From a virus, in IMG/VR virus record IMGVR_UViG_3300044825_002314, positions 1-32,355 of that record: a stretch of 32,355 nt of DNA. One strand, 5' to 3'. Below are positions 21,633-28,942 of this stretch, piece by piece. Positions within the stretch are counted from its first letter, which is position 1; each line of letters starts with the position of its first letter. A program made the position numbers and the translations under genes. The notes below the pieces were generated by a model. It saw only the letters and a list, made by a program, of their open reading frames with translations. It searched no databases and was not told the DNA's origin.

Positions 21633-22688
21633 ATGAACGGACAGTTTTACTATCACGAAATAATAAGAAGAACTTCCGCAGCATTTGGAACTCTTTTTAA
21701 TAATATTTTTATTCGTCATCAAGATGGCGAAGGTGATGACTTTAGTTATATTAAAGTTCCTATTGGATATGGTCCAATTCAAAAATTTCTAGCAAGAGTA
21801 GAGCAAAAACCAGATTTAAGAAATAGAGTTGCTATAACTCTACCAAGAATGTCTTTCGAAGTAGGTCAGTTAAGTTATGATAGCTCTAGGAAATCATCAT
21901 CATTACAAACATTTAATACTATAGTAGGTCCAAACAATACCCCAAGGCAACTTTATATGCCTGTTCCATATAATTTACCATTTGAATTGACTATAGCTAC
22001 AAAATATACTGACGATATGTTTCAAATTATAGAGCAGATATTACCATTTTTTAGACCAGAATTTAACTTGTCTGTAAATTTATCGTCAACAATAGGAGAA
22101 AAGAGAGATATTCCTCTAGTTCTTCAGGGAATATCTCCATTCCAAGATGATTACGAAGGAAATTTTGATAACAGAAGATTTATAACTACTACACTAAATT
22201 TTGTAGCAAAAATATATTTCTTTGGTCCAGTAGATACTGATGATAGTGGAAATATAATTAAGAGAGTTCAAGTGGATTATTATAATGATACTAATAGAGT
22301 TAATGCTTCAAGAACAAGAAGATACGTTGTTACACCAAGAGCTGTAACTGATTATAATGATGATAATGCTACTACAATAGCAAAATCCATTACAACTAAA
22401 ATTACAAAATTTGAAGTTGTAAATGGTTCTACATTAACTCCAAATACATATATTCAAATTAATAATGAAAATATGTATATAAAATCAATAGAAGGAAATT
22501 CAATTACAGTATTGAGAGGTCAAGATGGAACCCAAATTCAAGAACATCAAGAAGGTGATGTGGTAAATATTATAAACTTTATTGATGATGATTTGATAGT
22601 TCCTGGAGATAATTTTGAATTTAATGAAGAAACTTTTGATTTTGGTGATGGATTAATTTATAGTCCTAAAAAAGGTATAGATGTATGA
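21633..22688 (+). CDS. gp15: Tail completion and sheath stabiliser protein gp15
   Basis: The opening NGQFYYHEIIRRTSAAFGTL followed by NNIFIRH is the conserved gp15 start. VPIGYGPIQKFLARVEQKPD and LPRMSFEVGQLSYDSSRK follow in the expected order. In T4, gp15 is a hexameric ring that caps the tail tube and sheath and joins the tail to the neck. This one has 351 aa against 272. Residues about 265-316 carry an extra module (IQINNENMYIKSIEGNSITV, then RGQDGTQIQEHQEGD) that also occurs in the giant protein at the left end of the window. The stop overlaps the gp16 start (ATGA), beginning a chain of coupled packaging genes. Confidence 0.88.
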   Translation: MNGQFYYHEIIRRTSAAFGTLFNNIFIRHQDGEGDDFSYIKVPIGYGPIQKFLARVEQKPDLRNRVAITLPRMSFEVGQLSYDSSRKSSSLQTFNTIVGPNNTPRQLYMPVPYNLPFELTIATKYTDDMFQIIEQILPFFRPEFNLSVNLSSTIGEKRDIPLVLQGISPFQDDYEGNFDNRRFITTTLNFVAKIYFFGPVDTDDSGNIIKRVQVDYYNDTNRVNASRTRRYVVTPRAVTDYNDDNATTIAKSITTKITKFEVVNGSTLTPNTYIQINNENMYIKSIEGNSITVLRGQDGTQIQEHQEGDVVNIINFIDDDLIVPGDNFEFNEETFDFGDGLIYSPKKGIDV

Positions 22689-23125
22689 GTAGAAATTTTG
22701 ATTCCATAGATGAAGCATTAGAAATAGAAACAGATGCTAAAACTGTTTCTAGAGAAATTATACGTCAAGCAAAGCGTGAAGTAAAAAAGCCATTAACAAC
22801 CGATATTCTAGAAAGTGATAAAACTCATACTAGAAATACGGTATATGAATTAATTCAATTAGGTAGTGATGCTGCGTATGAAATGTTAGATATTGCGAGA
22901 GAAACTCAAAAAGCAAGAGATTTTGAAGTTGTAGGGCAATTACTAAAAGCAGTTGGAGATTTGAGTGATAAGCTATTAGATAATCAAAAGAAAATAAAAG
23001 ATATTGAAGCAGAAGTTTCAAGTTCTTCTAATGTAACTAATAATACAACAAATGCTTTATTTGTAGGAACTACTGCAGAATTACAAAAACTTCTTAAACA
23101 AAGTTCAAAGGAGACAAAAAAATGA
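22685..23125 (+). CDS. gp16: Terminase small subunit gp16
   Basis: This 146-aa, mostly helical, charged protein lies between gp15 and gp17 as in T4, where gp16 has 164 aa. The central LIQLGSDAAYEMLDIARETQ and KARDFEVVGQLLKAVGDLSD (about residues 56-96) form the helical hairpin and coiled coil typical of T4-family gp16, followed by KLLDNQKKIKDIEAEV. In T4, gp16 makes rings that bind concatemeric DNA and regulate gp17 cutting and ATPase. The ATG overlaps the gp15 stop, and the next gene's ATG overlaps this stop (ATGA at both ends), so translation is likely coupled. Confidence 0.87.
   Translation: MSRNFDSIDEALEIETDAKTVSREIIRQAKREVKKPLTTDILESDKTHTRNTVYELIQLGSDAAYEMLDIARETQKARDFEVVGQLLKAVGDLSDKLLDNQKKIKDIEAEVSSSSNVTNNTTNALFVGTTAELQKLLKQSSKETKK
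23107..23113 (+). promoter_or_regulatory. Strong Shine-Dalgarno AAAGGAG for the 319-aa protein
   Basis: AAAGGAG ends 8 nt before the ATG at 23122 and lies within the gp16 coding sequence. It supports that start and suggests robust translation. Confidence 0.65.
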
Positions 23126-24257: not shown

Positions 24258-25157
24258 ATGTCTTCTACTGAAACTTATTCTGGTAATCCATTACTCAAAA
24301 GAGCTAATGTTACTGTTGAATTTACGGCAGAACAAATACAAGAGTATATTAAGTGCTCTAAGGACCCAGTATATTTTTCTAAAAAATATGTAAAAATTGT
24401 AAGTCTTGATGAAGGTTTAGTTCCATTTAAAATGTATAAGTTTCAAGAGAAGCTTATACAAAATTTTCATAAGAATAGATTTAATATTTGTAAACTTCCT
24501 AGACAAGTAGGTAAAACAACTTGTGCGGTTGCATATTTAATGCATTACATTATTTTTAATGATAATGCAAACGTAGCACTCCTAGCGAATAAAGCTCAAA
24601 CTGCAAAAGATATTTTAGGTAGATTACAATTAGCATATGAAAATTTACCAAAATGGCTTCAGCATGGAGTTAAAATATGGAATAAAGCTTCATTAGAACT
24701 TGATAATGGTTCCAAAATTATAGCATCCTCTACATCAGGGTCTGCAATTCGTGGAGGTTCTTATAATGTAATTTTTTTGGATGAGTTTGCTTTCATTCCA
24801 AATCAAATTGCTGATGAATTTTTTAGTTCAGTATATCCAACTATTACTTCAGGTAAGAGCACTAAAGTTATTATGATTTCAACTCCGAAAGGAATGAATA
24901 CTTTTTATAAATTTTGGATGGATGCGATAAGAGGTAAAAATGAATATGTTCCTTTAGAAGTTCATTGGACTGAAGTTCCAGGTCGAGATGAAAAATGGAA
25001 GGCTCAAACTATCGCCAACACTTCGCAAGAGCAGTGGGAACAAGAATTTGAAAGTTTTTTACCTGAAACTTTGATAAATCTTGAAGTAGGTGGTAAGATA
25101 ATTGAGACTACCATAGGTGATTTATATAATAATTTATCTAGAAAAGAAACAACTTGA
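24258..25157 (+). CDS. gp17: Large terminase gp17, N-terminal ATPase half fused to N-intein
   Basis: Residues 1-265 are the ATPase half of T4-family gp17. The Walker A motif PRQVGKTT is at 81-88, the Walker B motif VIFLDE at 171-176, and the coupling motif STPKG at 208-212. The half ends at ...QEQWEQEFE. In an uninterrupted terminase this is followed by the Cys-containing linker to the nuclease. Here residues 266-299 (SFLPETLINLEVGGKIIETT, then IGDLYNNLSRKETT) are an N-intein and the frame stops with TGA. The nuclease half is a separate gene 37 nt downstream in another frame. Joined, the two exteins give about 565 aa, against 610 in T4. The half alone has no nuclease. Trans-splicing with the downstream product should restore the motor. 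There is no clear Shine-Dalgarno sequence. Confidence 0.95.
   Translation: MSSTETYSGNPLLKRANVTVEFTAEQIQEYIKCSKDPVYFSKKYVKIVSLDEGLVPFKMYKFQEKLIQNFHKNRFNICKLPRQVGKTTCAVAYLMHYIIFNDNANVALLANKAQTAKDILGRLQLAYENLPKWLQHGVKIWNKASLELDNGSKIIASSTSGSAIRGGSYNVIFLDEFAFIPNQIADEFFSSVYPTITSGKSTKVIMISTPKGMNTFYKFWMDAIRGKNEYVPLEVHWTEVPGRDEKWKAQTIANTSQEQWEQEFESFLPETLINLEVGGKIIETTIGDLYNNLSRKETT
25053..25154 (+). other. N-intein (34 aa) of a split gp17 intein
   Basis: These codons follow extein residue Glu265. The block A pattern is nucleophile-xxx-E-T-L-I (SFLPETLI), then GGK and a helix-forming IGDLYNN, which aligns by eye with the short N-intein of AceL-TerL (Cys1 ... DT ... EDLY). Position 1 is Ser in place of the usual Cys. 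The piece ends well before block B, so the break is at the unusual early site rather than at the common endonuclease site. Confidence 0.88.
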
Positions 25158-25165
25158 AAATATTA

Positions 25166-25173
25166 TATAAATT
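25166..25173 (+). promoter_or_regulatory. Possible late promoter box between the terminase halves
   Basis: TATAAATT, one base from the TATAAATA consensus, lies in the 37-nt gap, 21 nt before the ATG of the C-terminal half. In such AT-rich DNA this could be chance, so the call is tentative. Confidence 0.3.
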
Positions 25174-25177
25174 TAAA

Positions 25178-25182
25178 TAGGA
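25178..25182 (+). promoter_or_regulatory. Shine-Dalgarno TAGGA for the C-terminal terminase half
   Basis: TAGGA is 12 nt before the ATG at 25195. It is the only purine-rich site in the gap and supports independent initiation. An in-frame TAA directly precedes that ATG. Confidence 0.5.
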
Positions 25183-25194
25183 TTAAATTATTAA

Positions 25195-25539
25195 ATGAAA
25201 CTCCCAGATACTGTAGTTCGTAATAATAAAAACATAAAAATACTAACACCAAATGGATATCAACCATTCTTGGGTGTTAATAAGATTAAAAAAGACAAAT
25301 ATATTCATTTAACCTTTGAGGATGGTAGCGAACTTAAGTGTTCGCTAGATCATCCTCTTTCTACTATTGAGGGTATTATAAAAGCCAAAGATTTAGATAA
25401 TGAAATCGAAGTCTACACAAAAGAAGGTGGAACATTTCTTAAAAATTATAAAATTATAGAAGAAGAAGTAGAATTATACGATATTGTAAATTCTGGGATA
25501 GACCATCTTTACTATTCAAATAATTTAGTATCTCATAAT
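25195..25539 (+). other. C-intein (115 aa) of a split gp17 intein
   Basis: The order is: KILTPNGYQPFLGV near residues 15-28; a block B-like GSELKCSLDHPLST (44-57) with Ser50 and His53 in the TxxH positions; a block F-like ELYDIVNSGIDHLYYSNN (93-110) with Asp96 and His104; and block G VSHN (112-115), with penultimate His114 and terminal Asn115 followed by Cys. The segment from block B to block G is therefore complete, and there is no space for an endonuclease domain. Confidence 0.9.
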
Positions 25540-26442
25540 TGTAGTTTTCTAGGGTCAGTAGATACATTAGTTTCTTCAGCAAAATTACAATGTTTAGTTT
25601 ATAATGATCCAATAAAAAGATCAGAAGGATTAGATGTTTATGAAAACCCCATAGTAGATCATAACTATATGATTACTGTGGATGTTTCCGAAGGGACTGG
25701 GAAAGATTATCATGCTTTTGTAGTAATTGATATAACTTCTATACCTTACAAATTGGTAGCGAAATATAGGAATAACGAACTTAAACCTATGTTACTTCCA
25801 GACATAATTTATAAAGTGGCAACTTCTTACAATAAAGCATATGTATTAATAGAAATTGCTAGTGTTGGAGATCAAGTAGCTAAAGATTTAATGTTTGATT
25901 TAGAATATGAAAATATATTAATGTGTTCAATGAGGGGTAGGGCTGGTCAATTGGTTGGTCAGGGATTTTCTGGAAAAACTTCCCAACGTGGAATAAAGAT
26001 GTCCAAACAAGTAAAGAGAGTTGGATGTTCCAATTTAAAAACTATTATAGAAGATGATAAATTGATTATCAATGACTTTGATATTATTAGCGAATTAACT
26101 ACATTTGTATCTAAAAATAATTCATTTGAAGGTGAAATTGGATGTAATGATGACTTGAGTATGTGTCTTGTAATTTTTTCCTGGTTAATAGTTCAAGATT
26201 ATTTCAAAGAAATGACGAACAACGATGTTCGTAAAAGAATCTATGAAGAACAAAAAGATCAAATAGAACAAGATATGTCCCCATTTGGTTTTATAAATGA
26301 TGGTGTAATAAATGAAGACGAAGATTTCATCGAGAAAGAGACTGGAGATTATTGGTTGCTTGCAGATAATAATAATTTACCTCTTGAAGTTTGGAATCTA
26401 GATGAATATGGTGATATCAGTTATATGTGGAACTATAGGTAA
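25195..26442 (+). CDS. gp17: C-intein fused to large terminase gp17 C-terminal nuclease half
   Basis: Residues 1-115 are a C-intein. Residues 116-415 are the nuclease half of T4-family gp17, starting CSFLGSVDTLVSSAKLQ. The metal-binding acids of the RNase H-like packaging nuclease are visible: Asp163 in MITVDVSEGTG, Glu220 in YVLIEIASVGD, and Asp319/Asp320 in GCNDDLSMC. After splicing, Cys116 would directly follow Glu265 of the ATPase half. TAA immediately precedes the ATG, so this frame cannot extend upstream. The C-terminal tail is acidic and ends EYGDISYMWNYR. The tail sheath gene follows after 64 nt, behind its own late promoter. Without splicing this polypeptide carries a nuclease but no ATPase. 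Confidence 0.95.
   Translation: MKLPDTVVRNNKNIKILTPNGYQPFLGVNKIKKDKYIHLTFEDGSELKCSLDHPLSTIEGIIKAKDLDNEIEVYTKEGGTFLKNYKIIEEEVELYDIVNSGIDHLYYSNNLVSHNCSFLGSVDTLVSSAKLQCLVYNDPIKRSEGLDVYENPIVDHNYMITVDVSEGTGKDYHAFVVIDITSIPYKLVAKYRNNELKPMLLPDIIYKVATSYNKAYVLIEIASVGDQVAKDLMFDLEYENILMCSMRGRAGQLVGQGFSGKTSQRGIKMSKQVKRVGCSNLKTIIEDDKLIINDFDIISELTTFVSKNNSFEGEIGCNDDLSMCLVIFSWLIVQDYFKEMTNNDVRKRIYEEQKDQIEQDMSPFGFINDGVINEDEDFIEKETGDYWLLADNNNLPLEVWNLDEYGDISYMWNYR
25326..25347 (+). repeat. 8-bp inverted repeat within the C-intein block B codons
   Basis: TAGCGAAC at 25326-25333 and GTTCGCTA at 25340-25347 are perfectly complementary around a 6-nt loop. This is one of the strongest short hairpins I noticed in this AT-rich window. 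It is fully within coding sequence and its function is unknown. Confidence 0.6.
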
Positions 26443-26460: not shown

Positions 26461-26468
26461 TATAAATA
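26461..26468 (+). promoter_or_regulatory. T4-type late promoter box upstream of gp18
   Basis: TATAAATA follows a T-rich run and is followed by CTACTAGG. It is 38 nt before the sheath start, in the 64-nt gap after gp17. It is the most convincing promoter in the window and precedes a high-copy structural gene. Confidence 0.8.
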
Positions 26469-26506: not shown

Positions 26507-28942
26507 ATGGCGGTAAATTTAGTATCACCTGGTGTTAGTATCCGTGAAGTAGATCTAACAAAAGGTGGAATCAGTGCAGGTTTACAGAATGTTGGTGCGA
26601 TAGCAGGTCCTTTTGAGAAGGGTCCAATTAATCAACCCACTTTAATTGAAAACGAACAGCAACTTTTAGATATTTTTGGAAAGCCAAAAGTAGAGGATGA
26701 CCAATACGAATACTGGATGAGTGCATCAAATTATCTTTCTTACGGTGGGGCATTAAGAGTAATTAGAAATGATGTTGCTAATAATACTGCAGCTCTGAGA
26801 AATTCTAATGTAGGCGTTTCCATTACCTCAGTAAATTTAAAAATTACAAATTCTATAGATTTTGAAAATAATCATAGTGGAGATACTGGCTGGATTTTTT
26901 CCGCCAAAAATCCTGGAAGTTGGGCTAATAACTTAAAAGTTTGTGTTATCGATAGTTTAGCAGATCAGATTGTTTCTGGAATTAATACCACTCAAATTAA
27001 CGTTTCTGGATTTTCTACGGCAGCTACTCTCACTAATGTAACTGTAGGAATAACTACTACTATTTTAAGTGGAGTTAGTACTGCTGGAATTGCAATCAAT
27101 ATGTTTGTCCAAAGCGGTTCTTTAGCAAATTCTGTAGTAAGTGGATTAAGTGCTGCTAATGGTGGTACCATTACATTTTCAACTCCATCAACAAACACTG
27201 GAATAAGTACTGAAACAATTAGAATTGGTGTAACTACTACTAATGTTGTTCCTAGAGATATTCAAGTTGGATATGCAGTAACTCAAGCACTTTCTAAGAC
27301 TGCGGTAGTTGGAACTTCAGTAACTACAATAGGTGGTTATTTACGTGGTATCGTAACTGAAGTTGGTAATGGAAAAATTTCTGTTAAGGTTACTGATAGA
27401 GTAGAGAATGGAATTTCATATCCAGCAACATATGCAAATCCAGGAAATGCAAATTCTTCTATTAACGCATTTTCATTTGATACCCTTAGAGCATTAGATT
27501 TAACTATTACTAATAGTACTGGTAGTACTTCTACAAGATATTCTACATCAAATCTATCCATCACTGACTGGTATGATAATCAAATTATTCAATTAACAAA
27601 TTCTCAGATATTCTGGAAATCTATTGCCCCCAAGCCTGGAACTTCTCAGTATGCTTCAGAAAGAAGCTCCAAGAATGATGAGGTTCATATTGTAGTTATT
27701 GATGATACTGGTTCAATTTCTGGAATTTCTGGGAATATTCTAGAAAAACATCTATCATTGTCTAAGGCAACTGATGGTAGAATTTCCCCATCTCAACCAA
27801 TATACTACAAAGATTATGTGAATAATAATTCACAATATCTATATACTGCAGCATCTGAAGGTGGAATTGGTTCAGATTTAGTATCATCCGGTACTGGCTC
27901 CACTACAGTCACTATAACTAGTTTCACTTGGGGTAGAGTAGCTCAAGGAAGTAAGTTCAATTGCGTAGGTTCTAAAGTTTATACATTAACTGGAGGAACT
28001 GATTATAGCGGCACCAATACTATTGGTGGTTACTCTGTAACCAATGGTGATGTAATCTCATCATATGAATTACTAACAAATCAGAGTGAGTTTGATTTAA
28101 ACTTTTTAATTTGTGGACCATCTGGTGGACCAACAATTTACGACGCACAATCTAAAGCAAATTCATTAATTGCTATTGCAGAAAACAGAAAAGATTGTGT
28201 GGCAGTAATATCTCCATTTAAATCAGGTATAGTAAATGTATCTAACCCAACCACACAAACTACAAATATTATTGAATTTTTCTCTCCACTAACTTCATCA
28301 TCATATGCAGTATTTGATAGTGGATACAAATATACTTTAGACAGATTTAATAATAAGTTTGTATATATTCCTTGTAATTCTGATATTGCCGGTTTAATGG
28401 CTAGAACTTCTACAAATAATTATCCTTGGTTCTCACCTGCGGGAAGTGCTAGAGGTAGCCTAAATAATACAATTAAACTAGCCTATAATCCTTCACAGGG
28501 TCAAAGAGATACACTTTACACAAATAGAATCAACCCAATAATCTTCTCACCTGGAGCAGGATTTATTCTATTTGGTGATAAAACTGCACTATCATATTCT
28601 TCAGCATTTGATAGAATTAATGTTAGAATGCTCTTCTTAACTATTGAGAAATCAATTGAAGAAGCTGCAAGAGCACAACTATTTGAGTTTAATGACGCAA
28701 TTACACGCTCAAACTTTATCAATATTGTAGAGCCATATTTGAGAGATGTAAGATCCAAGAGAGGAATTACTGAATTTCTAGTAGTTTGTGATGAAACTAA
28801 TAATACTCCAGACATAATTGATTCTAATCAATTTAAGGCAGATATTTTTGTAAAACCTGCAAGATCTATAAATTTTGTAGGTCTTACCTTTGTAGCTACC
28901 AGAACTGGAGTTTCATTCTCTGAAGTTGTAGGTACTGTATAA
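26507..28942 (+). CDS. gp18: Contractile tail sheath protein gp18
   Basis: The start AVNLVSPGVSIREVDLTKGG, then GAIAGPFEKGPINQPTLIEN and LRVIRND (about residues 82-88), is the standard myovirus sheath N-terminus. The C-terminal third (KRGITEFLVVCDETNNTPDI, then FVKPARSINFVGLTFVATR) is the conserved sheath core. The protein polymerises around the gp19 tube and contracts on infection. At 811 aa it is longer than T4 gp18 (659). A Thr/Ser/Gly-rich segment at about residues 150-300 (including AGIAINMFVQSGSLANSVVS) looks like fibre-type sequence inserted in the outer domain. A late promoter box and AGAGG precede it, and gp19 follows after 22 nt. Confidence 0.95.
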   Translation: MAVNLVSPGVSIREVDLTKGGISAGLQNVGAIAGPFEKGPINQPTLIENEQQLLDIFGKPKVEDDQYEYWMSASNYLSYGGALRVIRNDVANNTAALRNSNVGVSITSVNLKITNSIDFENNHSGDTGWIFSAKNPGSWANNLKVCVIDSLADQIVSGINTTQINVSGFSTAATLTNVTVGITTTILSGVSTAGIAINMFVQSGSLANSVVSGLSAANGGTITFSTPSTNTGISTETIRIGVTTTNVVPRDIQVGYAVTQALSKTAVVGTSVTTIGGYLRGIVTEVGNGKISVKVTDRVENGISYPATYANPGNANSSINAFSFDTLRALDLTITNSTGSTSTRYSTSNLSITDWYDNQIIQLTNSQIFWKSIAPKPGTSQYASERSSKNDEVHIVVIDDTGSISGISGNILEKHLSLSKATDGRISPSQPIYYKDYVNNNSQYLYTAASEGGIGSDLVSSGTGSTTVTITSFTWGRVAQGSKFNCVGSKVYTLTGGTDYSGTNTIGGYSVTNGDVISSYELLTNQSEFDLNFLICGPSGGPTIYDAQSKANSLIAIAENRKDCVAVISPFKSGIVNVSNPTTQTTNIIEFFSPLTSSSYAVFDSGYKYTLDRFNNKFVYIPCNSDIAGLMARTSTNNYPWFSPAGSARGSLNNTIKLAYNPSQGQRDTLYTNRINPIIFSPGAGFILFGDKTALSYSSAFDRINVRMLFLTIEKSIEEAARAQLFEFNDAITRSNFINIVEPYLRDVRSKRGITEFLVVCDETNNTPDIIDSNQFKADIFVKPARSINFVGLTFVATRTGVSFSEVVGTV

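What the first reader, a model, noticed from the sequence alone, without database searches (positions are those of the whole stretch)
24258..26442. Large terminase split into two genes joined by an early-break split intein
Seen: the ATPase half ends in a 34-aa block A intein segment and stops. The nuclease half, 37 nt away in another frame, begins with a 115-aa segment holding blocks B, F and G and ending His-Asn before Cys. The break is between blocks A and B, not at the usual endonuclease site. Known: AceL-TerL is a natural split intein with a similarly short N-piece in a metagenomic phage terminase gene. Inference: this is a relative of AceL-TerL, and the packaging motor here (about 565 aa) exists only after protein trans-splicing. 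If so, assembly of two late products would be a control point for DNA packaging.
Basis: partly seen in the sequence, partly recalled or inferred. Interest (0 to 1): 0.93.

Follow-up and report, generated by a model that had tools for sequence, protein, structure and literature searches.

The report
Phage packaging motor in two halves
A T4-like, cyanophage-related virus encodes its DNA-packaging motor as two separate proteins, each carrying half of a self-removing "intein" that should stitch them together; this is a new member of a small known family of such split inteins (GOS-TerL/AceL-TerL), not a new kind.

Summary
The large terminase (T4 gp17) is two ORFs: an ATPase half (24258-25157, 299 aa) ending in a 34-aa intein N-piece, and a nuclease half (25195-26442, 415 aa) starting with a 115-aa intein C-piece that ends His-Asn before Cys. 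Homology to the consensus atypical split intein Cat-TerL is strong (C-piece E 2e-22; profile of the N-piece region E 9e-8). Intein-free relatives carry the exact predicted joined sequence (QWEQEFE-CSFLGSVDTL, 88-90% identity over 565 aa). The closest characterised relative is GOS-TerL rather than AceL-TerL: same Ser1/Cys+1 nucleophiles, break and C-piece length. About 50 distinct environmental alleles share site and break. Most (35) carry a homing endonuclease in the break; 18, including this one, lack an intact one, and here a piece of that gene's start probably remains. Only one distant relative is contiguous. So the split looks like the footprint of a homing-endonuclease 'fractured gene' kept functional by trans-splicing. 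A packaging 'control point' is not supported by anything found. Splicing itself is inferred, not shown. Verdict: new member of a known kind, with a useful natural series around it.

The parts
24258..25052 (+). N-extein: gp17 ATPase domain, 265 aa, ends EQEFE
   Evidence: PF03237 E 1e-21; phrog_5989 E 2e-63; Walker A/B and STPKG motifs
25053..25154 (+). Intein N-piece, 34 aa, Ser1; stop TGA at 25155-25157
   Evidence: Aligned with 13 relatives; profile of that alignment matches CatN 6dsl_A E 9.2e-8
25143..25165 (+). Probable remnant of the 5' end of a lost homing-endonuclease gene, overlapping the tail of the intein N-piece
   Evidence: 22 of 23 bases, with one 1-base gap, match the start of the endonuclease gene of L018 at the homologous place; 5 of 300 shuffles as good; other relatives matched less well
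25158..25194 (+). 37-nt gap between the halves; AGGA ribosome-site-like motif upstream of the ATG; weak T4-late-promoter-like TATAAATT at 25166
   Evidence: promoter match not above chance (94 one-mismatch TATAAATA sites on this strand)
25195..25539 (+). Intein C-piece, 115 aa: conserved H53, D96, C-terminal H114-N115
   Evidence: CatC 6dsl_B E 2.2e-22; fold Z 13.5 to 6dsl; invariant columns in 31 relatives
25540..26439 (+). C-extein: gp17 nuclease domain, 300 aa, starts Cys+1 (CSFLGS); stop at 26440-26442
   Evidence: 3c6a E 6.5e-45; PF17289 E 1.8e-15
22685..23125 (+). Small terminase (gp16), context
   Evidence: phrog_445 E 9e-36
26507..28942 (+). Tail sheath (gp18), context; exact late-promoter-like TATAAATA at 26461
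   Evidence: phrog_23 E 8e-122

Best explanation
The gp17 gene of a T4-like (cyanophage-related) virus is interrupted near the ATPase-nuclease hinge by a naturally split class 1 intein of the GOS-TerL/AceL-TerL family. The two precursors are translated separately (the second from its own ATG). The short N-piece is captured by the near-complete C-piece to rebuild the HINT fold. Ser1 attacks the Glu265-Ser1 bond (N-O acyl shift), Cys+1 takes over the chain (oxoester to thioester), Asn115 cyclises, and an S-N shift leaves ATPase-EFE-CSFLG-nuclease, a normal 565-aa terminase. The split most likely arose as a 'fractured gene': a homing-endonuclease gene sat between the intein halves and was later deleted here, leaving the two-gene layout. 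Shown here: anatomy, homology, catalytic residues, empty-site alleles, endonuclease-bearing relatives, purifying selection. Inferred: splicing itself, that packaging depends on it, and the direction of endonuclease loss.
For: Both ORFs and residues. CatN/CatC homology and fold. Intein-free alleles L020 and L024 with the exact predicted junction, 90% and 88% identical over 565 aa. The same intein and break in about 50 distinct alleles, the terminal His-Asn intact in every C-piece that reaches it. C-piece dN/dS about 0.1; pooled N-piece pN/pS 0.45. An endonuclease gene of about 365 aa (HTH plus DUF559/MTES_1575-type nuclease) fills the break in Ser1-type relatives, a GIY-YIG gene of about 190 aa in AceL-like ones, a 72-aa remnant in L023. 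A match to the endonuclease start at the expected place in the window. The published GOS-TerL intein (Ser1/Cys+1, 37/115 aa) trans-splices (PMC11766414).
Against: No splicing assay and no read-level data. Generic intein HMMs stay below their curated cut-offs. The N-piece alone has no significant match; only the family profile, which includes extein residues, does. The endonuclease scar rests on 23 AT-rich bases, and its 3' side is not significant.
Confidence: 0.93

Rival explanations
1. Sequencing or assembly error: a single contiguous mini-intein was broken by a false stop and frameshift.
For: One contig; no reads available.
Against: The same two-ORF layout occurs in dozens of independent contigs with different gaps (44-nt overlap to about 1.1 kb), many with a whole gene in between. 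In the window the second ORF is fenced by TAA directly before its ATG, and the MKLP start of the C-piece recurs in L007, L010, L014, L016 and L092.
Confidence: 0.02
2. The two proteins work as a two-subunit terminase without splicing; the intein pieces are dead remains.
For: gp17 ATPase and nuclease are separable domains; the insertion lies at about T4 residue 354 by alignment, in or near the interdomain linker (domain limits from general knowledge).
Against: All catalytic intein residues are kept and the C-piece is under strong purifying selection, also between endonuclease-free alleles (W-L092, L010-L016).
Confidence: 0.04
3. The split is kept by selection as a regulatory switch for packaging.
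For: Many endonuclease-free alleles remain split and only one distant relative (L145) is contiguous; in L126 the two ORFs are in one frame and directly adjoin at a single stop codon.
Against: Close relatives have an uninterrupted terminase. The endonuclease explains the origin of the split. Failure to re-fuse can be simple irreversibility. No regulatory signal was found.
Confidence: 0.07
4. RNA-level or translational joining: a group I intron, or ribosomal hopping as in T4 gene 60, unites the ORFs.
For: Hopping over about 50 nt is known in T4 (general knowledge).
Against: No Rfam match in L001 (window locus) or in five relatives. In endonuclease-bearing relatives the endonuclease ORF overlaps the N-piece and adjoins or overlaps the C-piece, leaving no room for an intron core. 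The C-piece has its own start, and joining would still leave an intein inside.
Confidence: 0.01

Closest known systems
GOS-TerL split intein (Bachmann and Mootz; described in PMC11766414 and PMC10189870)
   Same: Large terminase host gene, Ser1/Cys+1, early break, C-piece 115 aa in both, N-piece 37 aa (here 34)
   Different: Identified from metagenomic databases; here on a 32-kb viral contig with 37 nt between the halves and no endonuclease gene.
AceL-TerL split intein (Thiel et al. 2014; PMC11766414)
   Same: Large terminase gene, short N-piece (25 aa), early break
   Different: Cys1 rather than Ser1; C-piece 104 aa. Its look-alikes here (L026-L028) carry a GIY-YIG gene in the break and are 36-39% identical to the window C-piece
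Cat-TerL consensus intein (PDB 6dsl)
   Same: Both pieces homologous; fold Z 13.5, 42% identity over 107 residues
   Different: Engineered consensus with Cys1
Fractured genes with split inteins and a free-standing endonuclease (Dassa et al. 2009, title seen in a reference list)
   Same: Relatives carry a free endonuclease gene between intein halves
   Different: The window lacks it
Aeromonas phage PX29 genes 17A/17B (NC_023688)
   Same: Cultured phage annotated with N-intein on 17A and C-intein on 17B of the terminase
   Different: GIY-YIG domain fused to the C-intein half; only 30% identical

Membership tests
GOS-TerL/AceL-TerL atypical split inteins | Host gene is a T4-type large terminase, interrupted at EFE|C | tested here: met
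   intein-free alleles show the empty site
GOS-TerL/AceL-TerL atypical split inteins | Short N-piece (25-37 aa) with block A and long C-piece (about 104-115 aa) with blocks B, F, G | tested here: met
   34 and 115 aa; published lengths 37/115 and 25/104 (PMC11766414)
GOS-TerL/AceL-TerL atypical split inteins | Sequence and fold homology to the family consensus Cat | tested here: met
   CatC E 2.2e-22, CatN E 9.2e-8 by profile, fold Z 13.5
GOS-TerL type | Ser1 with Cys+1 | tested here: met
   SFLPET at 25053; SHN|C at 25540
GOS-TerL type | No NX-motif histidine (R/K-H) | tested here: inconclusive
   No R/K-H pair seen ahead of block B in the C-piece; not aligned to a Ser1 reference structure (PMC10189870)
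Class 1 inteins in general | Score above curated intein HMM cut-off | tested here: not met
   PF14890 13.7 of 35.8 bits, TIGR01445 19.8 of 24.5; a score of convenience on a split domain, not a defining biochemical feature
GOS-TerL/AceL-TerL atypical split inteins | Protein trans-splicing activity | not testable with these tools
   Needs expression
Fractured gene arrangement | Free-standing endonuclease gene between the intein halves | tested here: not met
   Only 37 nt here; probable 5' remnant; present in most relatives

The most novel reading that the evidence does not exclude
The two-gene state of the packaging motor is itself maintained by selection after the endonuclease is gone (endonuclease-free split alleles are scattered over the tree, contiguous ones almost absent), so that assembly of two late products times or limits DNA packaging.
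Probability: 0.07. Interest if true: 0.75.

Novelty: new member of a known kind. Interest (0 to 1): 0.4.

Why it matters
In 2023 the Ser1/Cys+1 combination was described as known from a single intein, GOS TerL (PMC10189870). Here 35 distinct alleles carry it, with apparent Ser/Cys switches inside the clade, separately evolving halves, and endonuclease-bearing, decaying and endonuclease-free forms side by side. This is a supply of natural short-N-piece split inteins for protein labelling, and a data set for asking how a selfish endonuclease turns an essential gene into two and why it stays that way.

Tried and rejected
The first Pfam and NCBIfam calls failed on an interval that crosses stops. 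The model of the whole C half was poor (pLDDT 50); only the intein part (about 60-90) was read. The N-piece alone against PDB gave nothing. A 3' endonuclease scar was sought and is not significant. A late promoter for the second half is not above chance. Rfam found no intron. The original papers on GOS-TerL and on fractured genes are not held, so their content is taken from later papers. Endonuclease state on the C-piece tree needs 15 changes by parsimony, but well-supported branches force only 5 and the label is no more clustered than shuffled labels, so the number of losses is not settled.

Full report
What is there. Searches confirm the two ORFs, their frames and the 37-nt gap. The first is a complete T4-type terminase ATPase (PF03237 E 1e-21) that ends EQEFE and runs on for 34 residues starting with Ser. 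The second starts with 115 residues ending SHN and continues as a gp17 nuclease from CSFLGS (3c6a E 6.5e-45). TAA stands directly before the second ATG, so the second protein must start on its own. By alignment the insertion point corresponds to about T4 gp17 residue 354 (taking the first nuclease aspartate as T4 Asp401, general knowledge), in or near the linker between the two domains. The neighbours are in the normal T4-like order: tail sheath stabiliser, small terminase, two genes of unknown function, large terminase, tail sheath, tail tube, portal.

It is an intein. The C-piece matches CatC of the solved consensus atypical split intein Cat at E 2.2e-22 and its predicted fold matches that structure best (Z 13.5, rmsd 2.4 A, 107 residues, 42% identity). 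A profile of 14 aligned N-piece regions matches CatN at E 9.2e-8, extein residues EFE included. Generic intein models fall short of their cut-offs, as can be expected of a split, divergent domain. His53, Asp96 and the terminal His-Asn are invariant in 31 relatives.

The exteins join correctly. Relatives without an intein at this site, L024 (one uninterrupted ORF) and L020 (with another intein at the P-loop), carry QWEQEFECSFLGSVDTL; the joined window exteins are 88% and 90% identical to them over 565 residues.

Relatives show the history. Three scans of the viral contigs and annotated phages gave 54 distinct C-piece alleles with both junctions in view, among them the window and two cultured Vibrio phages. 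35 have Ser1 and 19 Cys1. 35 were classed as endonuclease-bearing, by the size of the break: where looked at, it holds a free gene of about 365 aa with HTH and DUF559/MTES_1575-type nuclease domains in the Ser1 type, or a free GIY-YIG gene of about 190 aa in the AceL-like Cys1 type; in VP-1 and K469 the N-piece reads on into a GIY-YIG domain. L143, whose N-piece runs to 157 aa without an identified domain, was put in this class by hand. 18 have no intact endonuclease gene: their two ORFs overlap by up to 44 nt or lie up to 265 nt apart, the latter with a 72-aa remnant in L023. One, L145, is a contiguous mini-intein. The window's own tail, AAAGAAACAACTTGAAAATATTA, matches the start of the L018 endonuclease gene at the homologous position (5 of 300 shuffles as good), so loss of an endonuclease is the likely origin of the 37-nt gap. 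The C-piece tree puts the window near L014, L007 and L092, of which L014 and L007 carry the endonuclease. Parsimony needs many changes of endonuclease state, but support is low and strongly supported branches force only five.

It is in use. dN/dS of the C-piece is about 0.1 for window-L007 and 0.08 for window-L014, and low in nearly all pairs; the N-piece is looser (pooled pN/pS 0.45). These are counts on few sites with near-saturated synonymous positions, so they show constraint, not its exact strength. L018 and L019 share nearly the same intein (dS 0.1-0.2) in exteins that differ more (0.77-1.34), which suggests recent horizontal movement of the intein.

How it should work. A published relative, GOS-TerL (37/115 aa, Ser1/Cys+1), trans-splices by oxoester-to-thioester transfer and its N-piece can be exchanged with that of AceL-TerL (PMC11766414); [quoted passage not shown] The window shares the sequence features that could be tested, so the same chemistry is the best inference. 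That gp17 function needs splicing is inferred.

Observation exact. Split-intein reading right; nearest relative corrected to GOS-TerL; the assembly-error worry largely answered by independent contigs; the control-point idea has no evidence and a simpler explanation in the endonuclease footprint. A new member of a known kind, with a rich natural series around it.

Noticed in passing
L118 and L122: Cys1 alleles whose C-pieces fall inside the Ser1/Cys+1 clade, so residue 1 seems to have switched naturally; support of the branches is moderate.
   Followed up: partly
L023 against L014 and L021: N-piece resembles L014, C-piece resembles L021: the two intein halves have separate histories, as if recombined.
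   Followed up: partly
L007, L010-L012, L016-L018, L020: A second insert after about residue 86 of the same terminase, inside the P-loop (GK|T): a contiguous intein, with LAGLIDADG in L010. Some genes thus carry two inteins.
   Followed up: partly
L004 (Shigella phage JK32), L006 (Pseudomonas phage PspYZU05): Related C-piece at another terminase site (after about residue 176, at Walker B), also spread over separately annotated genes.
   Followed up: no
L002 (Vibrio phage VP-1), L003 (Vibrio phage K469): Cultured phages with the N-piece fused to a GIY-YIG endonuclease and the C-piece on an overlapping ORF; annotated only as terminase or hypothetical protein.
   Followed up: partly
window 7126, 16375, 26461: Exact TATAAATA, T4-late-promoter-like, 24-46 nt before three structural genes.
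   Followed up: no
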